Assembly: GCA_023251235.1 (NCBI GenBank)
Contig: JAHEZE010000005.1
Location: 13,144 to 61,682 of the forward strand
Source of the DNA: Sphingobacteriales bacterium
GTDB lineage: Bacteria > Bacteroidota > Bacteroidia > Chitinophagales > Chitinophagaceae
Direction of reading: 5' to 3'
Length of the DNA: 48,539 nucleotides
The notes beneath the pieces were generated by a model, which saw nothing but the letters and a program-made list of their open reading frames with translations, was not told the DNA's origin and ran no database searches. Position 1 is the first letter of the stretch, and every line of letters starts with the position of its first letter. A program made the translations under genes and the position numbers. This document shows, piece by piece, positions 1 to 34,706 of this stretch.

Positions 1-2094
1 GGAGTAACTTTCACTGACAGCACCGTTTATTACTGGAGGGTTTCTCCTCTCGATAACTCTGGCAATCCTTCCAAATGGGCAAATGCTTCTTTTGTTTATC
101 TGGTGAACAGTGAATTGGGTTTTAACCAGTCACATTTCTTTCAGCATACAAAATCCCTTTCGCAACGTGTAGCTATAGATTCCACCAGTCGTTTATGGAA
201 GTATAAACCGGTTGTCAACAATTTGTTTATCAGGTCAGCCATATACCCTACCGGATCAGCCATGCAGGCAGATTATACAATTACAGTGAATGGCGAAATC
301 ATTATTGGCCCCGGTTGTCATTACAATGAACTTATGATTAATGTATTTGACCCTGTTTCATTTAAACCATGGAGGAATGATGCTACGGGAACTTTATATA
401 ATAGTTCTGGTACCTGCGGTACACAAAGAGAATTTAATTTCCATTTCTTTGTGGGTGATACATTATGGAGAAGAAGAGTGCAGAATTTTCTTGAAAATAT
501 AGTACCAGATGGTGCCTATGTTTCAATCAGAAGCAACACTTCTCCCGATAATTCCGGTAATACCTATGCGGCAGAATGGAGAGCTGATACTGCTTTCTTT
601 GGTTCAGGAAATTCATTATATCATACTTTAAAAAACCAGGGTTTTACTGATCTGGATATGTATGACACCACAAAGTGCTTCATATTTGTTTATAAAAAGA
701 ATAAGCTGAATCAGTTTACTCCTAAATCAATGTTTGGAGAAAACATTTATGAGCGTCTTTTATTAAGCGTTGACTGTCCTACCCCCGATACTCTTGGATA
801 TACAACCTCACCGGTATTCGGACCTGCAAAACAATGGAAACAACTGAAATGGCGTGGTTCCACATCTGACTTTTCGCCGGGCGACAATCCAACTGTAGAT
901 GTTATTGGTGTTACCAACGCAGGATCTGAAGCTACTTTATTTACCAACTTAGATTTAACTCAACAGGATATTAACATCACTTCAATTAATACTGCACAGT
1001 ATCCTTTGGTTAAATTAAGAATGAGAAATTTGGATTCTGTTTACCTGACACCTTACCAATTGCGCTATTGGAGATTGACATACGATCCCGTGCCGGAAGG
1101 CGCCATAGCACCTAATATATTTATCCAGTTTAAAGATACCCTGGAGGCAGGTGAACCGCTCGACTTCAAATTGGCATTTAAAAATATAAGCGAAGCCAAC
1201 TTTGACAGCCTGAAAGTAAAAATGGCTGTAACTGACAAGAATAATGTGACCAAAATTTTTCCGATTTCAAAATTTAAGCCATTACTGGCTGGTGATACTT
1301 TGCAAGTCAGGTATCCGCTCCCGACGACAAATAATACTGGCCAGAATACATTATATGTAGATGTGAACCCGGATAATGATCAACCTGAACAGTTCCATTT
1401 CAACAATTTTATGTATAAGAATTTTTATGTAAGTACTGATAAAATAAATCCATTGCTGGATGTAACTTTTGACGGTGTTCATATCCTTAACCGTGATATC
1501 GTATCATCCAAACCACACATAACGGTTAAATTAAAAGATGAGAATAGGTGGAGTATCTTAAATGATACGGCAGGTGCAAAAGTACAGGTACGTTATCCTA
1601 ATGGTACTATTCACTCTTTCTTCTTTAATAATCCGGATACACTGAAATTTACAGCTGCAGGTAATGCACCCAATCCTGACAATACTGCCACCATTGACTT
1701 CATGCCTTATTTCTTGCAGGATGGCGATTACCAGTTGATTGTATCCGGTAAAGACAGGAGTGGAAACACAGCCGGTAATCTTGAATACAAAGTGGACTTC
1801 CAGGTGATTAATAAGCCGATGATATCAAACATGCTTAACTATCCCAATCCGTTCACTACATCCACAGCATTTTTATTTACCGTTACGGGTAGTGAAGTAC
1901 CACAAAATATTAAGATTCAGATTATGACTATAACCGGTAAAATAGTAAGAGAAATTACCAAAGATGAATTAGGTCCGTTGCACATAGGAAGAAACATAAC
2001 AGAATTTAAATGGGATGCAACTGATCAATACGGTCAAAAGCTGGCGAACGGAATTTACTTATACAGGGTAGTTACCAATTTAAATGGCAGATAA
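1..2094 (+). CDS. C-terminal part of a large secreted T9SS protein, PorU2/C25-peptidase-like (5' end outside window)
   Basis: The frame is open from base 1, so the start and any peptidase domain lie upstream. From the left edge I see a fibronectin-III-like end (YYWRVSPLD..G..SKW), then an ILEI/EMT-inducer-like region (about 260-700) with the phrase ENIVPDGAYVSIRS, then a CARDB-like beta domain (about 1120-1440), another Ig-like stretch, and a FlgD-like T9SS sorting domain beginning NYPNPF (about 1840). This order resembles the C-terminal half of PorU2-type C25 proteins of Chitinophagaceae; that assignment is from memory. The protein should be exported by Sec and then cross the outer membrane by T9SS. 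The frame stops at TAA 2092-2094, but the same frame continues with 26 plausible codons to a second TAA at 2173-2175, so the sorting domain looks cut short. Confidence 0.75.
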   Translation, partial: GVTFTDSTVYYWRVSPLDNSGNPSKWANASFVYLVNSELGFNQSHFFQHTKSLSQRVAIDSTSRLWKYKPVVNNLFIRSAIYPTGSAMQADYTITVNGEIIIGPGCHYNELMINVFDPVSFKPWRNDATGTLYNSSGTCGTQREFNFHFFVGDTLWRRRVQNFLENIVPDGAYVSIRSNTSPDNSGNTYAAEWRADTAFFGSGNSLYHTLKNQGFTDLDMYDTTKCFIFVYKKNKLNQFTPKSMFGENIYERLLLSVDCPTPDTLGYTTSPVFGPAKQWKQLKWRGSTSDFSPGDNPTVDVIGVTNAGSEATLFTNLDLTQQDINITSINTAQYPLVKLRMRNLDSVYLTPYQLRYWRLTYDPVPEGAIAPNIFIQFKDTLEAGEPLDFKLAFKNISEANFDSLKVKMAVTDKNNVTKIFPISKFKPLLAGDTLQVRYPLPTTNNTGQNTLYVDVNPDNDQPEQFHFNNFMYKNFYVSTDKINPLLDVTFDGVHILNRDIVSSKPHITVKLKDENRWSILNDTAGAKVQVRYPNGTIHSFFFNNPDTLKFTAAGNAPNPDNTATIDFMPYFLQDGDYQLIVSGKDRSGNTAGNLEYKVDFQVINKPMISNMLNYPNPFTTSTAFLFTVTGSEVPQNIKIQIMTITGKIVREITKDELGPLHIGRNITEFKWDATDQYGQKLANGIYLYRVVTNLNGR

Positions 2095-2175
2095 CTTGAT
2101 AAATACAAGGCAGAAAATGATAATACTGACATGTATTTTAATAAAGGATATGGAAAAATGTATTTAATGCGATAA
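2095..2175 (+). pseudogene. In-frame continuation of the T9SS sorting domain after a premature stop
   Basis: Reading on in the same frame after TAA 2092-2094 gives 26 codons, beginning LDKYKAEND and ending FNKGYGKMYLMR, then TAA at 2173-2175. The ending is like the last beta strand of T9SS C-terminal domains (G-K-M-Y-L-x-R). It therefore looks like the true end of the upstream protein, separated by a nonsense change or a base error. Confidence 0.7.
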
Positions 2176-2211: not shown

Positions 2212-2245
2212 AAAATCCCCCTCTGCACACGGGGGATTTTTCTTT
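2212..2245 (+). terminator. Rho-independent terminator after the T9SS protein gene
   Basis: A perfect 10-bp stem (2212-2221 with 2231-2240, AAAATCCCCC/GGGGGATTTT) with a 9-nt loop is followed by TCTTT. It lies 37 bp after the second stop (2175), which fits a transcript that was meant to extend past the premature stop. Confidence 0.8.
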
Positions 2246-2311: not shown

Positions 2312-4180
2312 ATGGCAAAAATCGGCATTAATATAGCAACAGGCAGTTTGCAACAGCAGGAAATGATAGTAGGTATTGATCTTGGAACTACTAACAGCTT
2401 GGTAGCAATCATTCATCCCGAAAGCAAGAAGCCAGTAGCGCTTAAAGAACATGATGGCAATACATTGGTTCCTTCCATCATTCATTTTGATGAATCAGGA
2501 ATTATTTCAGTGGGAGAATTGGCAAAGAAATTTCTTATCACCGAACCTCAGAATACTATTTTTTCTATAAAAAGATTATTGGGTAAATCCTATAATGATA
2601 TTAAAAAGCGGTCCACATTTTTTACATATAAAATAATTGATGATAATACAGAGAGCCTGGTGAAAATTCAGGTAGGCTCAAAATTCTATTCACCTATTGA
2701 ATTATCATCATACATATTGAAAGAATTAAAAACAAGAGCCGAGCATATTTTAAAAACACCGGTTAAAAAAGCAGTCATCACCGTGCCCGCTTATTTTAAT
2801 GATGCACAACGACAAGCAACGAGAGATGCAGGAAAACTGGCCGGCCTGGATGTATTGCGTATAGTGAACGAGCCTACGGCCGCAAGTCTTGCTTATGGGT
2901 TAGGTATGAAAAAGGATGAAATAAAAACAGTAGCTGTGTATGATCTTGGCGGCGGCACATTTGATATTTCTATTCTTCGCATTACCAACGGAATTTTTGA
3001 AGTATTATCAACAAATGGAGACACTTATCTTGGCGGTGATGATTTTGACCAGACTATTATTAAATTCTGGATGCAACAAACCGGGATAACGGAAGAGGAA
3101 CTATCAATGCACAAGAATATTTTGCAGGAATTTCGCCTGAAAGCGGAAGAAGCAAAAAAACATCTTAGTTTAAATAATTTATATGAAGGTAAAGTTGCCA
3201 ATGATAATATAATTATTACCCGAAGCGAATTTGAAAAATTAGCTGAGCCTCTGGTGGAAAAAACCATTACCTGTTGTAAAAATGCCATGAGTGATGCCGG
3301 ACTTTCTTTTAATGAAATTGATGAAGTGATAATGGTAGGTGGATCAACAAGAATTCCATTGGTGAAAGAAAAAATCAGCAAGCTGTTTGGCAGAAAAGTT
3401 CATGATGAACTGAACCCTGATGAGGTGGTGGCCCTGGGCGCCGCAGTACAGGCAGATATTCTTGCAGGGAATAATAAAGATTTTCTGTTGTTGGATATTA
3501 CACCGCTGTCACTTGGTATTGAAACCATGGGTGGATTGATGGATGTACTGGTTCCACGCAATTCAAAAATTCCTTCCAAAGTGGGCCGTCAATATACAAC
3601 TCAGAAAGATGGACAAAGTGGAATTCGGATTTCTGTTTTCCAGGGGGAAAGAGACCTTGTACGGGATAATCGAAAACTTGCTGAATTCAATTTAAGCGGC
3701 ATACCACCTATGCCTGCCGGGTTACCCAAAGTAGAAGTTTCATTTTTAATAAATGCTGATGGTATTTTGACTGTAAAGGCAAAAGAATTACGAAGCGGCG
3801 TCGAACAGAGCATTGAAGTAAAACCTCAATATGGTTTAACGGATGAAGAGGTGGAAAAAATGCTTATGGATTCCATTAAACATGCAATAGAAGATATTGC
3901 TACAAGAGCCCTTGTAGAATCGAGGACTGAAGCCATGCAATTAATAGATACTACAGAAAAATTTATGCAAAAGAATAAAGCATCACTAACCGAAGACGAG
4001 TTGCGGATAACACAATCAGCTATTGATGATTTAAAAATTGTAATACAATCATCCGATAAAGATATCATACATCAAAAAACAGAGGCATTAAATGAAATTT
4101 CCCGGCCCTATGCGGAACGGGTATTGGATGTGGCTATCAGTAAAGCGATGAGCGGGAAGAATATTAAAGACGCTATTTAG
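2312..4180 (+). CDS. hscA: Hsp70 family chaperone HscA (Fe-S cluster assembly type)
   Basis: A 622-residue Hsp70: GIDLGTTNS at about 21-29 (ATP-binding phosphate 1), DLGGGTFD at about 210-217 (phosphate 2), a hydrophobic linker and start of the substrate domain ([17 protein letters not shown], about 392), and a helical lid from about 510. HscA is favoured over DnaK by the short N-terminal extension before the ATPase, the length (E. coli HscA is about 616 residues), the tract [21 protein letters not shown], and [12 protein letters not shown] after the substrate domain, without the acidic GGMP-like tail of DnaK. It would help transfer Fe-S clusters from the scaffold IscU with HscB; no isc gene is nearby. 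The start at 2312 keeps the HscA-like extension; 2363 is an inner alternative. Its 3' end overlaps the convergent gene by 8 bp. Confidence 0.85.
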
Positions 4181-5846
4181 CCCGGAAGCCATCTGTTATT
4201 TTTAATCCTCTTAAAATAAAATGCTCACAGCTATCATCTGTACAGGGAACAGGAATATTACCAAATGGAAAATTTGCAGGCGGTTGGTTAATCTTTATTT
4301 CACCACACTTAATGGTTTTATAATTTATTTTTTCAATTCCTAATGGTTGAAGCCACTGATCTCCTTTAAAGAAATGGTTAAAACGATAAGCAGAATATAC
4401 TGAAATAGCAATGACAGCTGCAGCCAGTGAAAAAAGCAAGACCAATTTCTTCAATCGGGTAGCCGGTATCAGAAAATTGCTGACAATTGCAATGAAACCA
4501 ATTAAGAATCCAAAACCAAATCGTGGATCCGGGGCATTGATAAACCAAAAAATTATTCCGACCAGCATGATCATTAAAGCAATTTTAATATTTAAGTCAG
4601 TTGAAATTATTTTTTTAAACCAGAGAAGGGAAGTAAAAAATGTCAAAGCAAAAACAATTAATATAGTTTTATCAGCCAACGAACGATTAGCCCACCATGC
4701 TGGGAGCCATTTACTTAATTTCATATTTACAGATGATTCTATTGCCTCTTTAGATCTGTCAGTTTCTGTTCTTGCATATGCTTTTATATAATCATTTTCA
4801 AGATTGGTGAGCTGCGTGTTATATTTCCAATCAGCATTTACAATATCCACTGCAGTAGTTGGAAATACAATGTATCCCGAAGAAATAACATTTCTTGCAA
4901 CAAATGGTAAAAGTGTAATTACTGCCATTACCACAAGAAGCATAAACAGCCTTATTTCTTTTTCTTTTAGAAATAATATAGCAGCTATTATAAAAAAAAT
5001 AATGACTGGCAAAGCTGACAGTTTTATCGTAATAGCAGTTAAACTTAAAAGAGAGATCAGGAGCCATTTGATTTTACCGGATACTTTTTTATCTGTTAAA
5101 AGATAAATAATGGCCCAAATAAAAAGGTTTGCAATAAAATCCGGGCTGGCAGATGTTGCTGTAAGCCTGACCTGGGTATAACTCCAGAAACTGATAGCTA
5201 AAAGCAAAATCCAAAAAATTTCTTTTAAATAATTTTCCTTTTGTAAAATACTTTTATTGATTTTGAAGACTATAAACAGGATATACCAGAGGAGGATAGT
5301 CGTATTAAGAAAGGTTGTTGCATTGCTGCCCAGGAATTTCAAACTGAACAAAGCGCAACTTGTAAACCACAACCCCTGGTAGCCAAAACGTGGATGCAGA
5401 TGAACTATGCCGGGAATTACTTTATATTTTTCAATCCATTGAATAGATTGCGCCTGGTAGCCAAGTGTATCGGGGTGTACAATTTTCCATGAACTCATTA
5501 CTAACAGCATCACAAGGCAAACAAAAAATAATATAAGTGCGGGAGGCCTTAATAGAATTAATTCTATCCTGATTTTTTCTATGATAATTTTCCGATGAGT
5601 TCTTAAAAGAAAAATTACAGAGGGTAATAAAACAATTAATTGCGCCTGCCATCCACCCAGTGGCATAAAAAGTGAGAGGATGCCGGCAATAGCCGAGATG
5701 GCTGCGAAACCCAATAAGCATAAAATACTAAAATGTGGAAATGCCTCTGCATTTTTTGAAGTAACGGCCATCAATCGGTAAACAAATACTCCCCACGCAA
5801 AGCAGATGATTGTAATATAAATGCATGCCAGCAGAATAAGAAGCAT
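4173..5846 (-). CDS. Multi-span membrane protein, GT-C glycosyltransferase-like (paralogue of 6680-8365)
   Basis: A 557-residue protein with about 10-12 hydrophobic segments. The first large loop carries HPDT (about 124-127) followed by [20 protein letters not shown], and a late loop has PDPRF (about 437). Both motifs recur in the 561-residue neighbour at 6680-8365, and both proteins end with a short soluble tail finishing in GFR. An acidic residue in the first outer loop is a feature of GT-C enzymes that use polyprenyl-phosphate sugars, so I infer a GT-C-like role. Such proteins are often annotated only as hypothetical (the LIC_10190-type family, from memory). ATG start at 5846; it is last in a minus-strand run with the GT2 79 bp upstream. 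The stop overlaps the hscA 3' end. Confidence 0.6.
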
Positions 5847-6679: not shown

Positions 6680-8365
6680 TCACTTTTCTAAACGAAAACC
6701 TGAGTTGATATCTTTTCCTCTTGCTTTCAGTCTGGGATCAATTTGATACAGGCAGGGCAGTGTTGTGCCATAGCAGCGGGGATTCCAGTTGTTATTTATT
6801 TTTTCAGGTATCCTGAGAATGATGCCATCAAGAGATATTTCAGTAACAGGAGGCTTTGGCAATGGAGCTGGTTTCATCCAGATCACTGTTGAGGGTTGCT
6901 TTATTATTTTTCTCACAGTATAAAATCCCGAACTAAACAGTACTAAAATAAAAATCCCGGAGATAACTTTCTGAAGGAACTCACCGCTGATAATTTTCAA
7001 ACAATAATAAACAAGCATAAACACTCCTGAAAGCAGGATTCCATAAACAAACCTTGGATCGGGGGAAATATAAAACCATGATATCAGTGACACAATAATT
7101 GTGAATAGAAAAAAACGATAAGGTGCGGAAAGAACAGATCTGTTTTTAACAAAAACGACTAAGCCGGTAATCAGACCAATGATACCGGGAATTAGAATCA
7201 ACTTGTCATATAGAAATAGATAATGAAACCATGCTGGTATCCACCCTGATCCCAGTGCTTTTGTTTGTTCAATGTCGAGAAAGGAAGTACTTACACGGTT
7301 ATAATATTTGATGTATTCCAGTAGTTTGTCAATGATCTGCGAATCGGCCTTCCAATCCACATTGAATAGATTAAAATATGGAGCCGGATAAAACGGATAG
7401 CCTGATGTAATTATATTTCTAGCGAGGAATGGGATAATGAGAATCAGACAATATACAATGGATAATAGGCAGCTCCTCCATTTTCTGTTTTTTGCCAGAA
7501 TATAAAATGCAAACAAACTCAGTAACAATAACGGATAATTGATGATTCGGACAGTGAAAAGATAAACTGGCCAGATAAGCCACTCTTCATTAAGTGAAAA
7601 ATTATTCGTTATATCTTTTTTCACAAATGTTTCAGTGAACAGTACAAACACAAGTAATGTTTTAATAAAATCATAATTGGTGGTAGCTGCATTACCTCTT
7701 GTTATCGGCCATATTGCTAATGAGAAAAGTAGAACAGCAATCAGAGCAATAGCTATATGGCTATTCTTTTCTTTTGTATACTTTACTGCTGTAGTGATCA
7801 GGTAAAAACAAAGCCAAACTGAAAGAACAGCATTCAACGTCGTAAAAAGGTTCAATTTACCGGCGATAGAACCAAAAAAAGCAATGCTGCTGAACCAGGA
7901 CGAATTGAACCCATACCGTTCATGCAGATTTACTATGCCAGGTACAGAACCATACTCCTGTATCCACTTTATCATTTGGATGTGATAACTCTCTGTATCG
8001 TCCATCATCACCGGCCCTGAATTGATCAGTATTATCATTAACCATAATACTATTAGCAATGCTTTTGCATAGAGGGGAAGAGAAACTATCTCATTCAGAA
8101 CAAACCGGAAGAATGTTGCGAATTGGTTTTTTTTAAAAAATGCAAACAGAAACAACAGTAACAAGATTACAGCCAGAAGATAAATGTTGACCGGTAAAAA
8201 CAGTGCAGCAACCTGGCTGATTATTGTAAGAAGGATCAACCCGCTGATGGCATAAAATATAACCGGTTTGGTTTCTTCATTTTTTAATATGTAGCGATAA
8301 AAAATAAATCCTGACCAGAGGCAAATAATTGTGATAGTTATATTAATAATAAGAGACAGAAGCAT
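6680..8365 (-). CDS. Multi-span membrane protein, GT-C glycosyltransferase-like (paralogue of 4173-5846)
   Basis: A 561-residue, very hydrophobic protein with about 11-12 predicted membrane segments. MDDTESY (about 121-127) sits in the first large loop, then WIQEYGSVPGIVNLHERYGF, and PDPRF (about 434) in a late loop. All three have counterparts at matching places in the 557-residue protein downstream, and both have a soluble C-terminal tail. The shared D-T in the first loop and the DPM1-like enzyme next door argue for a lipid-linked-sugar transferase; that is inference. ATG start at 8365; 40 bp upstream of the GT2 gene and 50 bp after the acyltransferase gene, same strand. Confidence 0.6.
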   Translation of the reverse strand: MLLSLIINITITIICLWSGFIFYRYILKNEETKPVIFYAISGLILLTIISQVAALFLPVNIYLLAVILLLLFLFAFFKKNQFATFFRFVLNEIVSLPLYAKALLIVLWLMIILINSGPVMMDDTESYHIQMIKWIQEYGSVPGIVNLHERYGFNSSWFSSIAFFGSIAGKLNLFTTLNAVLSVWLCFYLITTAVKYTKEKNSHIAIALIAVLLFSLAIWPITRGNAATTNYDFIKTLLVFVLFTETFVKKDITNNFSLNEEWLIWPVYLFTVRIINYPLLLLSLFAFYILAKNRKWRSCLLSIVYCLILIIPFLARNIITSGYPFYPAPYFNLFNVDWKADSQIIDKLLEYIKYYNRVSTSFLDIEQTKALGSGWIPAWFHYLFLYDKLILIPGIIGLITGLVVFVKNRSVLSAPYRFFLFTIIVSLISWFYISPDPRFVYGILLSGVFMLVYYCLKIISGEFLQKVISGIFILVLFSSGFYTVRKIIKQPSTVIWMKPAPLPKPPVTEISLDGIILRIPEKINNNWNPRCYGTTLPCLYQIDPRLKARGKDINSGFRLEK

Positions 8366-8415
8366 TTTATTGCTTTATAAATTTTACAACAAAGATTCGG
8401 GATAGAATAATAAAA

Positions 8416-12750: not shown

Positions 12751-13941
12751 ATGGCAACTAAAGAAACATTTAAAAGGGATAAACCCCACGTTAACGTTGG
12801 TACTATTGGTCATATTGACCACGGTAAAACAACACTTACTGCTGCAATTACAACCATTCTTTCAAAAAGAGGTCTAGCTACAGAAAAAAAGTATGATGAA
12901 ATTGATGCTGCTCCTGAAGAAAAGGAACGAGGTATAACCATCAATACAGCTCACGTAGAATACCAGACGCTCAAAAGACACTATGCTCACGTTGATTGTC
13001 CAGGGCATGCTGACTATGTAAAGAACATGATTACAGGCGCTGCTCAAATGGACGGTGCTATTCTGGTTGTGGCTGCTACCGATGGTCCTATGCCACAAAC
13101 TAAAGAGCATATACTGCTTGCCCGCCAGGTAGGTGTTCCCCGTATGGTAGTATTTATGAACAAGGTTGACCTTGTAGATGATCCGGAACTTCTTGAACTG
13201 GTAGAAATGGAAATTCGTGAATTATTAACTTTCTACGGTTTCGATGGAGAAAATACTCCTATCATTCAAGGATCTGCAACAGGTGCATTAGCTGGTGAAG
13301 AAAAATGGCTAAAAGCTATTGATGAATTGATGGATGCAGTCGACAGTTATATTCCGCTGCCGCCACGTCCGGTTGATCTGCCATTCCTGATGTCGGTTGA
13401 AGACGTATTTTCAATCACGGGTCGTGGTACAGTGGCTACCGGTCGTATCGAAAGAGGTCGCATTAAAGTGGGTGAACCAGTTGAGATTGTTGGATTGATT
13501 CCTCAGCCGCTTGCTTCTGTAGTAACTGGTGTAGAAATGTTCCGCAAATTACTTGATGAGGGTGAGGCTGGTGACAACGCTGGTCTGTTATTGCGTGGAA
13601 TTGAAAAAACACAGATCCGCCGTGGTATGGTAATTTGTAAACCCGGTTCTATTACACCACATACGGATTTCAAATGTGAAGTGTACGTTTTAAGTAAAGA
13701 AGAAGGTGGTCGCCATACTCCTTTTTTCCAAAAATATCGTCCTCAGTTTTATTTTAGAACTACCGATGTAACGGGAGAAGTAGAATTGCCAGCAGGCACA
13801 GAAATGGTAATGCCTGGTGATAACTGTGCTTTGACTGTGAGGTTGATTCAGCCAATTGCGATGGAGAAGGGTTTGAAGTTCGCTATCCGTGAAGGCGGTC
13901 GTACAGTTGGTGCCGGACAGGTAACTGAGATATTGAAGTAA
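12751..13941 (+). CDS. tuf: Translation elongation factor EF-Tu
   Basis: A 396-residue EF-Tu of normal length. G-domain motifs are GHIDHGKT (about 20-27), the switch I region with [13 protein letters not shown], and NKVD; domains 2 and 3 follow, ending [10 protein letters not shown]. It brings aminoacyl-tRNA to the ribosome with GTP. It follows four tRNA genes after a 130-bp stretch holding the tRNA relic and a hairpin, so it is probably co-transcribed with them from 11952-11959. No second tuf is seen in the window. Confidence 0.98.
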
Positions 13942-17712: not shown

Positions 17713-18408
17713 ATGTCATTCCTTAGTAAAAAAAGAAAAGTTGCCCAGTCTAAAGTTGATGGCAGCAAATATTATAGCCTGAGAGAAGCTTCTTCCTTAG
17801 TGAAAGATGCGACCACTTGTAAATTTGATGCTTCTGTTGACCTGCACATTCGGTTAGGGGTTGATCCTAAAAAAGCTGACCAAGCCATCCGCGGTACTGT
17901 AAAGCTTCCCCATGGAACGGGTAAAACAAAAAAAGTACTGGTGCTTTGTACCCCAGATAAAGAAGCGGATGCAAGAGCAGCAGGCGCTGATTATGTAGGG
18001 CTCGATGAATATGTAACAAAGATCGAAAGTGGTTGGGTGGATGTGGATGTTATTATTGCCACACCGCAGGTAATGCCAAAGATTGGCAAGCTGGGTAAAG
18101 TACTTGGTCCAAGAAACCTGATGCCAAACCCTAAAACCGGAACTGTAAGTAATGATGTTGCAGCTGCTGTTAATGAAGTAAAAGGTGGTAAGATTGCTTT
18201 CAAAATTGATAAGGCAGGAATTATTCACGCATCCATTGGAAGAGTAAGCTTTTCACCAGAAAAAATTGCGGAAAACAGTAATGAGTTATTGAACGCAATT
18301 ATCAAAGCCAAACCTTCTTCATCAAAAGGAACTTACCTGAAAGGCATCAGCATGGCTAGTACAATGAGTCCGGGAATTTCTATTGACACAAAAGCTTTTG
18401 TTCATTAA
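17713..18408 (+). CDS. rplA: 50S ribosomal protein uL1
   Basis: A 231-residue L1 when begun at ATG 17713 ([14 protein letters not shown]). This matches family length; the frame is open to ATG 17689, but those nine codons look unlike L1 and abut a repeat. The two-domain L1 fold is supported by the [20 protein letters not shown] start of domain I and by [26 protein letters not shown] in the middle. It forms the L1 stalk at the E site and commonly represses its own operon by binding the message leader. rplJ follows after 13 bp. Confidence 0.95.
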
Positions 18409-23700: not shown

Positions 23701-24534
23701 CAGATAAACACTCTCCTGCACAACTATAGTATTAAGTATAATGAAGAATTAGGTCGTTATAAAAGAGAAAAATTCAATATCAGTATAGGAGATGAATTAC
23801 CTGCCGGCGTGTTGAAACTTGCAAAAGTTTACCTCGCAGTAAAGCGTAAGTTGAAAGTAGGAGATAAGATGGCTGGTCGTCACGGTAATAAAGGAATTGT
23901 TGCCAAGATCGTTCGTGCTGAAGATATGCCTTTCCTTGAGGACGGAACACCTGTGGATATAGTTCTTAATCCACTTGGCGTACCCAGCCGTATGAACCTT
24001 GGGCAGATATATGAAACTGTTCTTGGCTGGACCGGGCAAAAGCTTGGAACAAAATTCTCCACACCTATTTTTGACGGAGCTACAGTAGATGAAATTGCAG
24101 AATACTGTAAGCAGGCAGACATTCCAATGTATGGTCATACCTATTTATATGACGGGGAAACGGGAGTTCGGTTCCATCAGAAAGCTACGGTGGGGGTTAT
24201 TTATGTTATCAAACTTCACCATATGGTGGATGATAAGATGCATGCCCGTTCTATCGGACCTTATAGCCTCATTACGCAACAGCCTTTGGGCGGTAAGGCT
24301 CAGTTTGGTGGGCAGCGTTTTGGTGAGATGGAAGTGTGGGCATTGGAAGCTTACGGTGCATCCAACATACTACAGGAATTATTAACTCTTAAATCAGATG
24401 ATATCATTGGTCGTGCAAAAACTTATGAGAGCATTGTAAAAGGTGATAATGTTCCAAAACCCGGTGTGCCTGAATCATTCAATGTATTGGTACATGAATT
24501 ACGTGGATTGGGGCTTGATCTGAAATTTGAATAA
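20731..24534 (+). CDS. rpoB: DNA-directed RNA polymerase subunit beta
   Basis: A 1267-residue beta subunit, complete from [28 protein letters not shown] to GLGLDLKFE. The rifampicin pocket lies at 467-495 ([23 protein letters not shown]) with D476, H486 and S491 (E. coli 516, 526, 531) all of the sensitive type. MAGRHGNKG marks the conserved active-site side of the C-terminal half. It has its own promoter because the HhH gene cuts it off from rplL. It is followed by rpoC after a 105-bp spacer that holds an AGCT-type inverted repeat. Confidence 0.98.
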
Positions 24535-24639: not shown

Positions 24640-27600
24640 ATGGCAATGAAAAGAGATAATCGTCCGAAACCTACATTTTCAAAAATTACAATCGGGCTTG
24701 CTTCACCTGATACTATTCTTGAAAAAAGTTATGGTGAAGTATTGAAGCCGGAAACCATCAACTACCGTACCTATAAGCCGGAACGTGATGGATTGTTTTG
24801 CGAAAGAATTTTTGGCCCTGTAAAGGATTATGAATGTGCCTGCGGAAAATATAAACGGATCCGTTACAAAGGAATCGTGTGTGACCGCTGTGGTGTGGAA
24901 GTAACAGAGAAGAAAGTTCGTCGGGAACGTATGGGCCACATCAAACTTGTAGTACCGGTAGTTCATATCTGGTATTTTAAATCTTTGCCGAATAAGATTG
25001 GTTATTTGCTTGGGGTAAGCTCTAAGAAATTAGAAAGTATTGTTTATTATGAGAGATACGTTGTGATACAAGCAGGAATCCGTGTTGATAAAGGTCAGAA
25101 TGCTGGTGACTTAATAACTGAAGAAGAATATCTCGATATTCTTGATGCATTACCAAAAGATAACCAGTACCTGCCCGATGATGATCCTAATAAATTCATT
25201 GCTAAAATGGGGGCTGAAGCGGTCCATGATATGTTGCAACGAATCGATCTGGATCAGTTGTCTTTCGATCTTCGTAATACTGCAGCAACAGAAACATCAC
25301 AACAACGTAAAGCAGATGCTTTGAAGCGATTGAGTGTAGTGGAAGCTTTTCGAGATGCTAATACAAGAATTAATAACCGTCCTGAATGGATGGTCATGCA
25401 ATATATTCCTGTCATTCCACCGGAACTACGTCCATTGGTTCCATTGGATGGTGGGCGATTTGCTTCTTCTGATCTGAATGATCTCTATCGTCGTGTTATT
25501 ATCCGTAATAATCGATTGAAAAGATTATTAGAAATCAAAGCACCGGAAGTAATCCTTCGAAATGAAAAAAGAATGCTGCAGGAAGCAATCGATTCTCTTT
25601 TTGATAATTCAAGAAAATCAAATGCTGTAAAGGCTGAAGGTGGCCGGGCATTGAAATCACTAAGTGATGTATTAAAAGGTAAACAAGGTCGTTTCCGCCA
25701 GAATTTGTTAGGTAAACGTGTTGATTACTCGGGCCGTTCGGTTATTGTGGTAGGCCCAGAATTGAAATTGCATGAATGTGGGTTACCAAAAGATATGGCT
25801 GCTGAATTGTTTAAGCCATTTATCATACGAAAACTCATTGAAAGAGGTATTGTAAAAACTGTAAAGAGTGCAAGGAAATTGGTTGATAAGAAAGAAGCCG
25901 TTGTTTGGGATATTCTGGAGAATATTCTGAAAGGGCACCCGGTAATGTTGAACCGTGCTCCCACGCTTCACCGATTATCTATCCAGGCCTTTCAACCAAA
26001 ATTAATTGAAGGTAAAGCTATACAGCTACACCCGCTGGTATGTACAGCCTTCAACGCGGACTTCGATGGTGACCAGATGGCAGTTCACGTGCCATTAAGC
26101 AACGCAGCAGTATTGGAAGCACAATTACTTATGCTGGCTTCACATAATATTCTTAATCCACAAAACGGTACACCTATTACCCTTCCTTCACAGGACATGG
26201 TATTGGGACTTTATTATCTTACAAAAGGGAAAAAAAGTACTGAAACTGAGGTGGTGCGTGGCGAGGATATGAGATTTTATAGTACCAACGAAGTGATAAT
26301 TGCATACAATGAAGGTATACTGGATCTGCACGCATGGATAAAAGTAAAAGCAAATATCAGGGAGAATACCGAACTGGTAAACAAACTTATTGATACAACA
26401 GTTGGCCGTGTAATTTTTAATCAGCACGTGCCGGTAGAAGTTGGATTTGTAAATGCGCTGCTTACCAAGAAAAATCTTCGGGAGATCATTGGCGATATTA
26501 TCAAAATCACGAATATTCCAAAGACTGTAAAGTTTCTGGATGATATCAAGCAACTTGGTTTCCGTACTGCTTTCCAGGGTGGGTTATCATTCAGTATTAA
26601 TGACCTTGTAATTCCAGCGATAAAAGAAGAATTGCTTGAACAGGCAAAAAGCGAAGTAGATGAAGTATGGGAAAGTTATAACATGGGGCTTATCACTAAC
26701 AATGAAAGATACAACCAGATAGTAGATATCTGGAGCCGTGTTGATACCCGCATTACTGAAACATTGATACGTGAAATGAGTATCGATAAGCAAGGCTTCA
26801 ACTCTGTTTTTATGATGCTTGATTCCGGCGCCCGTGGCAGTAAACAACAGGTAAAGCAGCTTGCCGGGATGAGAGGATTGATGGCCAAGCCAAGAAAATC
26901 AGGATCGACAGGAAGTGAAATTATTGAGAACCCGATTCTTTCCAACTTCAAAGGAGGATTGAATGTATTGGATTATTTCATCTCAACGCACGGTGCCCGT
27001 AAAGGTCTTGCTGATACTGCGTTAAAGACTGCTGATGCTGGTTACCTTACCCGTCGTTTGGTTGATGTGTCACAAGACGTGGTGATCACTGAAGAAGACT
27101 GTGGTACACTTCGTGGTATTGCAACCAGTGCTTTAAAGGATAATGAAGATGTTATTGAACCTTTGAGTGATCGAATTGAAGGTCGTACTTCCTTACATGA
27201 TGTTTATGATCCCCAAACCGATCAGCTTATTATTCATGGGGGTGAGGAGATTACTTCTGAGCTTGCAAAAAGGATTGAAGAAAGCGGCGTGGAGATTGTA
27301 GAAATCCGTTCGGTTCTTACCTGCGAAAGTAAACGTGGTTGCTGTGTCAAATGCTATGGCAAAAATCTTGCTACCGGTAATATAACTCAGAAAGGTTACG
27401 CAGTAGGTATCATCGCCGCTCAATCTATTGGTGAGCCGGGTACACAGCTTACCCTGCGTACATTCCACGTGGGTGGTGTGGCAGGTTCTGCTACTGTCGA
27501 CTCCACATTGAATGCCAAATTTGAAGGCACCGCGCAATTTGATGGATTACGTTCAGTAACCGTTGAAAATAACGAAGGTCATAAAGTACAGGTTGTAATT

Positions 27601-33929: not shown

Positions 33930-34706
33930 TTATACCTCATAAATATCTCCCGCAACTTTTTCGCTAACTTTTTTTGGCATTAGCCATACCATGAATTTCG
34001 TAATTTTATTTATAAGGCCTATTGTTGTTTCTGCTTTTCCGCTATACATAGCATTAATGGCTGCTTCGGCAACTGATGCCGGATTCATATTAAAAGTTTT
34101 TGCAGCTTTCAATGCTTTGGCCCCCACTTTAGCCCTGTTTGCAAAATCAGTATCAGTAGAACCAGGACAGGCAACAGTGACAGAAACATTGGTGTTTCGC
34201 AATTCATACCTTAATCCCCGACTGAAGCTTTGAAGAAAAGCTTTTGATGCAGCATAAATATTTAATCCCGGTACTGCCTGGAAGGAGGTCTGGCTGGCGA
34301 TATTCAGTATATATGCTTTTTCCTGATCACGAAGCATAGGGAGAAAATAAGAACAGAGTTCTACAATTACATTCATATTGATCCGCATTACTGCAAGATG
34401 TTCCTCCAAAGTGTAATTTTCAAAATGTCCGCTTAATCCATAGCCTGCATTATTAATCAGTATATGTATGTTGTATTTCTTTTCAATACAGCAATCATAT
34501 ATTTTTTTGGCTGCACCTTCAATTGCGAGATCAATAGCTATATAATTTGCTTTGATTCCGTATTTTGAACTAAATAATTCTGTAGTTTCTTTTAAAAGAT
34601 CTTCATTCCTTGCAATCAGGAGCAAATCAGTTTTTCTGTTTGCCAATTCTTCTGCCATAGCCCTACCAATGCCTTTACTGGCGCCTGTTATTATTGCTGT
34701 GCCCAT
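33930..34706 (-). CDS. Short-chain dehydrogenase/reductase (DltE-like)
   Basis: A 258-residue classical SDR from ATG 34704-34706. It has the TGASKGIGRAMA nucleotide loop (about 7-18), NNAGYGLSG, the catalytic Ser region NIASQTSFQ, Y-x-x-x-K in IYAASK, and ACPGSTDTDF after the active site. It should be an NAD(P)(H)-dependent oxidoreductase on an unknown carbonyl or alcohol. The PhyH gene lies just upstream on the same strand (34-bp gap), so they may share a message. Confidence 0.88.
   Translation of the reverse strand: MGTAIITGASKGIGRAMAEELANRKTDLLLIARNEDLLKETTELFSSKYGIKANYIAIDLAIEGAAKKIYDCCIEKKYNIHILINNAGYGLSGHFENYTLEEHLAVMRINMNVIVELCSYFLPMLRDQEKAYILNIASQTSFQAVPGLNIYAASKAFLQSFSRGLRYELRNTNVSVTVACPGSTDTDFANRAKVGAKALKAAKTFNMNPASVAEAAINAMYSGKAETTIGLINKITKFMVWLMPKKVSEKVAGDIYEV

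What the first reader, a model, noticed from the sequence alone, without database searches (positions are those of the whole stretch)
2080..2175. In-frame TAA removes the last 26 residues of a T9SS sorting domain
After the stop at 2092-2094 the same frame runs on for 26 codons ending FNKGYGKMYLMR, a natural-looking T9SS terminal strand, then TAA and a strong terminator. Either a real nonsense mutation, a base error, or a leaky stop. If real, it should disturb secretion or surface attachment of this PorU2-like protein.
Basis: partly seen in the sequence, partly recalled or inferred. Interest (0 to 1): 0.62.

Follow-up and report, generated by a model that had tools for sequence, protein, structure and literature searches.

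The report
Late stop codon in PorU2 gene
A gene for a surface-processing protein of the Bacteroidota type IX secretion system carries one stop codon shortly before its normal end, cutting off a tail of the kind that related proteins need to cross the outer membrane; it is most likely an ordinary recent loss-of-function mutation, or less likely a base error in the assembly.

Summary
TAA 2092-2094 is in frame in a PorU2 gene, and the frame stays open for 26 more codons to TAA 2173-2175. The tail is real coding sequence: 101 of 101 distinct homologues have a sense codon at the stop position (serine in 61) and continue into the same conserved end. Of 150 family match rows printed, only this genome's has an internal stop. 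The tail has 11 synonymous and 2 amino-acid changes in 26 codons against a near relative, and the C-terminal region is not accelerated. So the stop is very recent or a base error; it is not a natural end, an old pseudogene or a conserved recoding site. TAA ends 16 of 23 other checked window genes at their usual place. The lost part should hold the last strand of the T9SS C-terminal domain; in P. gingivalis PorU, replacing the last six residues mimics deletion (PMC11285876, section 2.2 read). PorU and SprA are intact here, and PorU2 is undetected in 75 of 244 family genomes. No reads were available to separate mutation from error. Ordinary; low interest.

The parts
1..2094 (+). 3' part (697 codons plus stop) of the porU2 gene; the gene starts upstream of the window at C135:10681
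1810..2172 (+). T9SS-type C-terminal domain (FlgD-Ig/Por_Secre_tail-like), including the part beyond the stop
   Evidence: on 1810-2091: TIGR04183 27.6 bits (cut-off 23); PF13860 29.4 bits (27); match of 1480-2091 to PorU 6za2_A, E 4.2e-10
2092..2094 (+). premature in-frame TAA
   Evidence: sense in 101 of 101 distinct homologues
2095..2172 (+). 26 codons beyond the stop, conserved in sequence, including the predicted last strand (model residues 224-229, window 2149-2166; low confidence)
2173..2175 (+). TAA at the family's usual gene end
   Evidence: 83 of 101 homologues have their own stop at exactly this distance from the position of the premature stop
2212..2241 (+). intrinsic-terminator-like inverted repeat and T-run

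Best explanation
A recent, lineage-specific nonsense mutation near the end of the PorU2 gene in the sampled strain. Shown: the stop is in frame; the relatives examined have a sense codon there; the tail was under selection until very recently. Inferred: the protein ends before the last beta-strand of its T9SS C-terminal domain, so it would be made and reach the periplasm but not be carried across the outer membrane, which amounts to loss of PorU2 function while the classical PorU/SprA machinery remains.
For: Sense codon in 101 of 101 distinct homologues, Ser in 61. In the genus the PorU2 match has no stop in 5 of 5 other genomes. Of 150 printed match rows in the family only the window's own has a stop inside. 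The tail against L004 has 13 identical, 11 synonymous and 2 changed codons of 26, and is more like the homologue than the upstream part is in 87 of 101 comparisons. No acceleration: mean identity to outgroups 0.677 against 0.657-0.676 for four relatives. None of 23 other orthologue-checked genes, all in the first 34 kb of the window (9049 codons counted stop to stop), runs into a comparable stop. The reading frame is kept on both sides, so it is a substitution rather than the commoner indel error (inference). PorU2 seems dispensable in the family: 75 of 244 genomes, 60 of 209 of the better ones, have no match at E 1e-40. P. gingivalis PorU with its last six residues replaced behaves like the deletion and stays periplasmic (PMC11285876 section 2.2).
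Against: No reads and no second genome of the species. The gene shows no other sign of decay, which is also what an isolated base error would give. A 100-N stretch in the same gene, 2.1 kb away, shows local assembly difficulty. The consequence for secretion is carried over from PorU. The tail adds nothing to the family scores: TIGR04183 27.6 bits without and 27.2 with it, and the match to PorU ends just before the stop with or without the tail, so the equivalence of the tail to PorU's last strand rests on position and a low-confidence model.
Confidence: 0.6

Rival explanations
1. The stop is a base error or a consensus artefact of a (probably metagenomic) assembly; the real gene is intact.
For: The genome is in 181 contigs and has 100-N stretches, one of them inside this gene. 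The gene is otherwise conserved and not accelerated. Relatives are intact.
Against: 23 other orthologue-checked genes of the window show no comparable fault. No excess of odd residues in the C-terminal region: 1 deviation at 39 fully conserved columns, and 14 of 101 homologues have at least as many.
Confidence: 0.32
2. Leaky or programmed readthrough of TAA gives some full-length protein.
For: The tail is intact and in frame.
Against: A functional readthrough site should recur in relatives; 0 of 101 have a stop there. TAA ends 16 of 23 orthologue-checked genes, within 14 residues of the relatives' ends. A recent mutation also explains the intact tail.
Confidence: 0.04
3. The shortened protein is functional: PorU2 in this strain works without the last strand.
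For: The domain still scores above the TIGR04183 cut-off without the tail (27.6 against 23 bits); no study of PorU2 export was found.
Against: Family-wide conservation of the tail (tail positions 18, 20, 21 the same in 101 of 101); tail replacements or deletions impair PorU, PorZ, RgpB (two residues) and PPAD (four residues, not two) according to PMC11285876 section 2.2.
Confidence: 0.04

Closest known systems
PorU2, putative type IX secretion system sortase (NCBIfam NF052324)
   Same: N-terminal part 789.5 bits (cut-off 450), Peptidase_C25 domain, PorV2 gene (NF052325, 542.3 bits, cut-off 325) directly upstream; C-terminal domain as in relatives
   Different: ends 27 residues early, unlike the 101 homologues examined
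PorU of Porphyromonas gingivalis (6ZA2; NF033707)
   Same: C25 protease with an Ig-like C-terminal domain; sequence match over that domain up to the stop; the model aligns to 6za2_B 946-1157 as second of 50 rows (Z 8.9, rmsd 10.2, 183 aligned)
   Different: far below the PorU cut-off (77.4 bits for the C part, 98.6 for the N part, against 420); the genome's true PorU lies elsewhere (C153, 1351.1 bits)
Laboratory PorU mutant 1152sHis (PMC11285876)
   Same: the end of the C-terminal domain is lost
   Different: engineered replacement of six residues in PorU; here 27 residues are cut from PorU2 and no phenotype is known

Membership tests
PorU2 (NF052324) | score over the curated cut-off of 450 bits | tested here: met
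   789.5 bits, residues 5-786 of the N-terminal part
PorU2 (NF052324) | C25-type peptidase domain | tested here: met
   PF01364 181.2 bits (cut-off 23); catalytic residues not checked
PorU2 (NF052324) | complete C-terminal end as in homologues | tested here: not met
   stop 27 residues early; 101 of 101 others go on. Hence 'disrupted PorU2'
PorU sortase (NF033707) | score over the cut-off of 420 bits | tested here: not met
   77.4 bits for the C part, 98.6 for the N part
T9SS type A sorting domain (TIGR04183) | score over the cut-off of 23 bits | tested here: met
   27.6 bits truncated, 27.2 read through; the match stops at model position 62-63 of 72 either way
Por_Secre_tail (PF18962) | score over the gathering score of 27 bits | tested here: not met
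   22.2 bits truncated, 21.5 read through, 21.6 in the relative L045
Programmed readthrough or recoded stop | stop codon kept at this place in relatives | tested here: not met
   0 of 101 homologues
Nonsense mutation as opposed to base error | read support for the stop | not testable with these tools
   no reads or second assembly of the species available

The most novel reading that the evidence does not exclude
PorU2 does not need the last strand of its C-terminal domain, and this strain carries a working, periplasmic or differently anchored short form of the second T9SS sortase.
Probability: 0.04. Interest if true: 0.45.

Novelty: new member of a known kind. Interest (0 to 1): 0.13.

Why it matters
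Little beyond this genome. It is a clean example of a late stop that a gene caller would report as a nearly full-length PorU2. It also shows that PorU2/PorV2, a conserved neighbour pair related to the studied PorU/PorV, is not named in the open library searched (PorU2: none; PorV2 with type IX: one false text match) and is undetected in 75 of 244 family genomes, so its role is open.

Tried and rejected
Natural shorter terminus: rejected, 0 of 101 homologues end at N-G-R. Old pseudogene: rejected, no acceleration and a conserved tail. TAA reassigned: rejected, 16 of 23 orthologue-checked genes end at TAA within 14 residues of the relatives' ends. General T9SS decay: not supported; PorU and SprA match over their whole length without stops and the genome has 25 TIGR04183 matches at E 0.001, this gene's included. 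Cluster of miscalls: the window has 5 residues before the stop and 1 after it seen in none of 101 homologues, against a median of 3 (range 0-33) for the others, and 22 of 101 others have one or more such tail residues; not unusual.

A second apparently short PorU2 (G255, match to query residue 179 of 231) ends 5 bases before the end of its contig. Two other rows with stops are weak partial matches, not PorU2: G052:C34 (E 2.9e-4) and G004:C15 (E 7.9e-4). In one search, 70 ORFs had a hit; the 23 genes besides PorU2 were chosen by hand as the main, non-overlapping frames. Minus-strand ORFs 3403-3588, 13506-13742, 17994-18224, 24148-24369 and 26424-26675 also gave readthrough scores over 100; I dropped them as shadow ORFs antisense inside longer intact genes, along with lower-scoring ones. 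Almost nothing beyond window base 34,000 had an orthologue in the stretches fetched, so that part was not checked. One search read plus strands only and mis-scored reversed loci; one search replaces it. For one search, 135 loci were held; 5 of the own genome (L001-L003, L033, L134) were left out and the rest were dropped if they scored below 250 or repeated the same DNA, leaving 101. Searches use a slightly different set (longer query, partial loci dropped), which also numbers 101. The structure model is weak at the tail (block means 53-64 pLDDT) and its match to PorU is second to an unrelated-looking row with rmsd 10.2, so I use it only as a hint; no second model was made. The Rfam search of 1700-2500 gave nothing. 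PorV2 in PMC10994853 is a false text match, one passage seen. Of the papers listed only PMC11285876 was opened (passages, sections 2.1 and 2.2).

Full report
What is there. The window lies at C135:13144-61682 of a 3.23 Mb assembly in 181 contigs, completeness 95; the relatives found are mostly Chitinophagaceae and other Bacteroidota, many of them metagenome-assembled (record titles). The first 2,094 bases are the end of a gene that starts at C135:10681, directly after a PorV2 gene (NF052325, 542.3 bits, cut-off 325). Its N-terminal part matches PorU2 (NF052324, 789.5 bits, cut-off 450) and Peptidase_C25 (181.2 bits). A 100-N stretch at C135:13044-13143, inside the gene, ends just before the window's first base; an unsized scaffold gap would account for this frame counting 1545 residues (tail included) instead of about 1700 in relatives.

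The stop. TAA 2092-2094 is in frame; the frame runs on for 26 codons to TAA 2173-2175. In one search, 101 distinct homologues were aligned: all 101 have a sense codon at the stop position (Ser 61, Ala 13, Lys 7, others 20), 83 of 101 have their own stop at exactly the same distance as the window's second TAA, and tail positions 18 (G), 20 (G) and 21 (K) are the same in 101 of 101. In the genus, the PorU2 match has no stop in 5 of 5 other genomes. Of 244 genomes drawn from the family, 169 have a match at E 1e-40; 150 match rows are printed (counted by hand; the rest are not shown), and only the window's own has an internal stop; 148 of the 149 others reach the last query residue, and the remaining one runs into its contig end.

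How old it is. Against L004, the relative most alike in the last 123 residues, the tail has 13 identical, 11 synonymous and 2 changed codons of 26; the 96 codons upstream have 33, 57 and 6. The tail is more alike than the upstream part in 87 of 101 comparisons. The C-terminal region is not accelerated: mean identity to outgroups 0.677, against 0.671, 0.674, 0.676 and 0.657 for four relatives, and the identities of PorU2 to two relatives (0.732 and 0.673 for the C part, 0.673 and 0.604 for the N part) lie near those of several neighbouring genes, below the most conserved ones. One tail residue (methionine at tail position 13) and one upstream alanine (2017-2019, glycine in 101 of 101) are seen in no homologue, but other homologues carry as many oddities (14 of 101 for fully conserved columns). 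The stop is therefore either very recent or not real.

Mutation or error. For other genes of the window I tested whether relatives' genes run on past a window stop into matching sequence. Of 24 orthologue-supported genes in the first 34 kb (PorU2 and 23 others with 9049 codons counted stop to stop, chosen by hand), only PorU2 shows this. TAA ends 16 of the 23 others, within 14 residues of the relatives' ends. This argues against a generally poor assembly and against TAA being read as sense, but cannot exclude a single wrong base. From general knowledge (no call), substitution errors in short-read consensus are rarer than disrupted genes in natural strains, which is why I put a real mutation ahead at about 2 to 1. 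Without reads this remains a judgement; how this genome was sequenced is not known to me.

Consequence. The domain cut is T9SS-like: TIGR04183 27.6 bits, FlgD_ig 29.4 bits, and a match to PorU 6za2 at E 4.2e-10 that ends at chain position 1141 of 1156, one residue before the stop. Against a simple reading, the tail adds nothing to these scores: with it, TIGR04183 gives 27.2 bits, PF18962 stays under its cut-off, and the PorU match ends at the same place. The model puts a last strand at residues 224-229, inside the lost tail, with low confidence, and a structural alignment, second of 50 rows, spans to PorU residue 1157 (Z 8.9, rmsd 10.2). In P. gingivalis, replacing the last six residues of PorU gives the phenotype of the deletion and periplasmic retention, and loss of two residues inactivates RgpB (PMC11285876, sections 2.1 and 2.2 read). 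By analogy the shortened PorU2 should stay in the periplasm. This is inference: no paper naming PorU2 was found in the library. The rest of the machinery, as far as tested, looks intact: PorU (1-1095 of 1095) and SprA (8-2318 of 2319), no stops, and 25 sorting-domain matches in the genome; other components were not searched. PorU2 is undetected at E 1e-40 in 75 of 244 family genomes, 60 of 209 of the better ones, so its loss seems tolerated in the family.

Verdict. Observation right, interpretation largely right, and ordinary: an isolated late nonsense mutation or base error in one genome's PorU2.

Noticed in passing
C135:13044-13143 (L002:7045-7144), just before window base 1: A 100-N stretch, probably a scaffold gap, inside the porU2 gene; a second one at C135:3048-3147 (L134).
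   Followed up: partly
window 2131-2133: Methionine at tail position 13 where 101 of 101 homologues have another residue (Lys, Gln or Arg in 99); possible first sign of relaxed constraint after the stop, or chance.
   Followed up: partly
window 2017-2019: Alanine after Trp-Asp where 101 of 101 homologues have glycine.
   Followed up: partly
L002:3500-4654: PorV2 gene (NF052325) directly upstream of PorU2, suggesting a shuttle-sortase pair parallel to PorV/PorU; no paper naming either was found in the searched library.
   Followed up: partly
window 4176-5846 and 6683-8374, minus strand: Two LIC_10190-family membrane proteins, less conserved than their neighbours, with a glycosyltransferase-like gene between them.
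   Followed up: no
window 2312-4180: HscA-type Fe-S assembly chaperone gene follows PorU2 (TIGR01991 716.5 bits, cut-off 708.55), as in four relatives.
   Followed up: no
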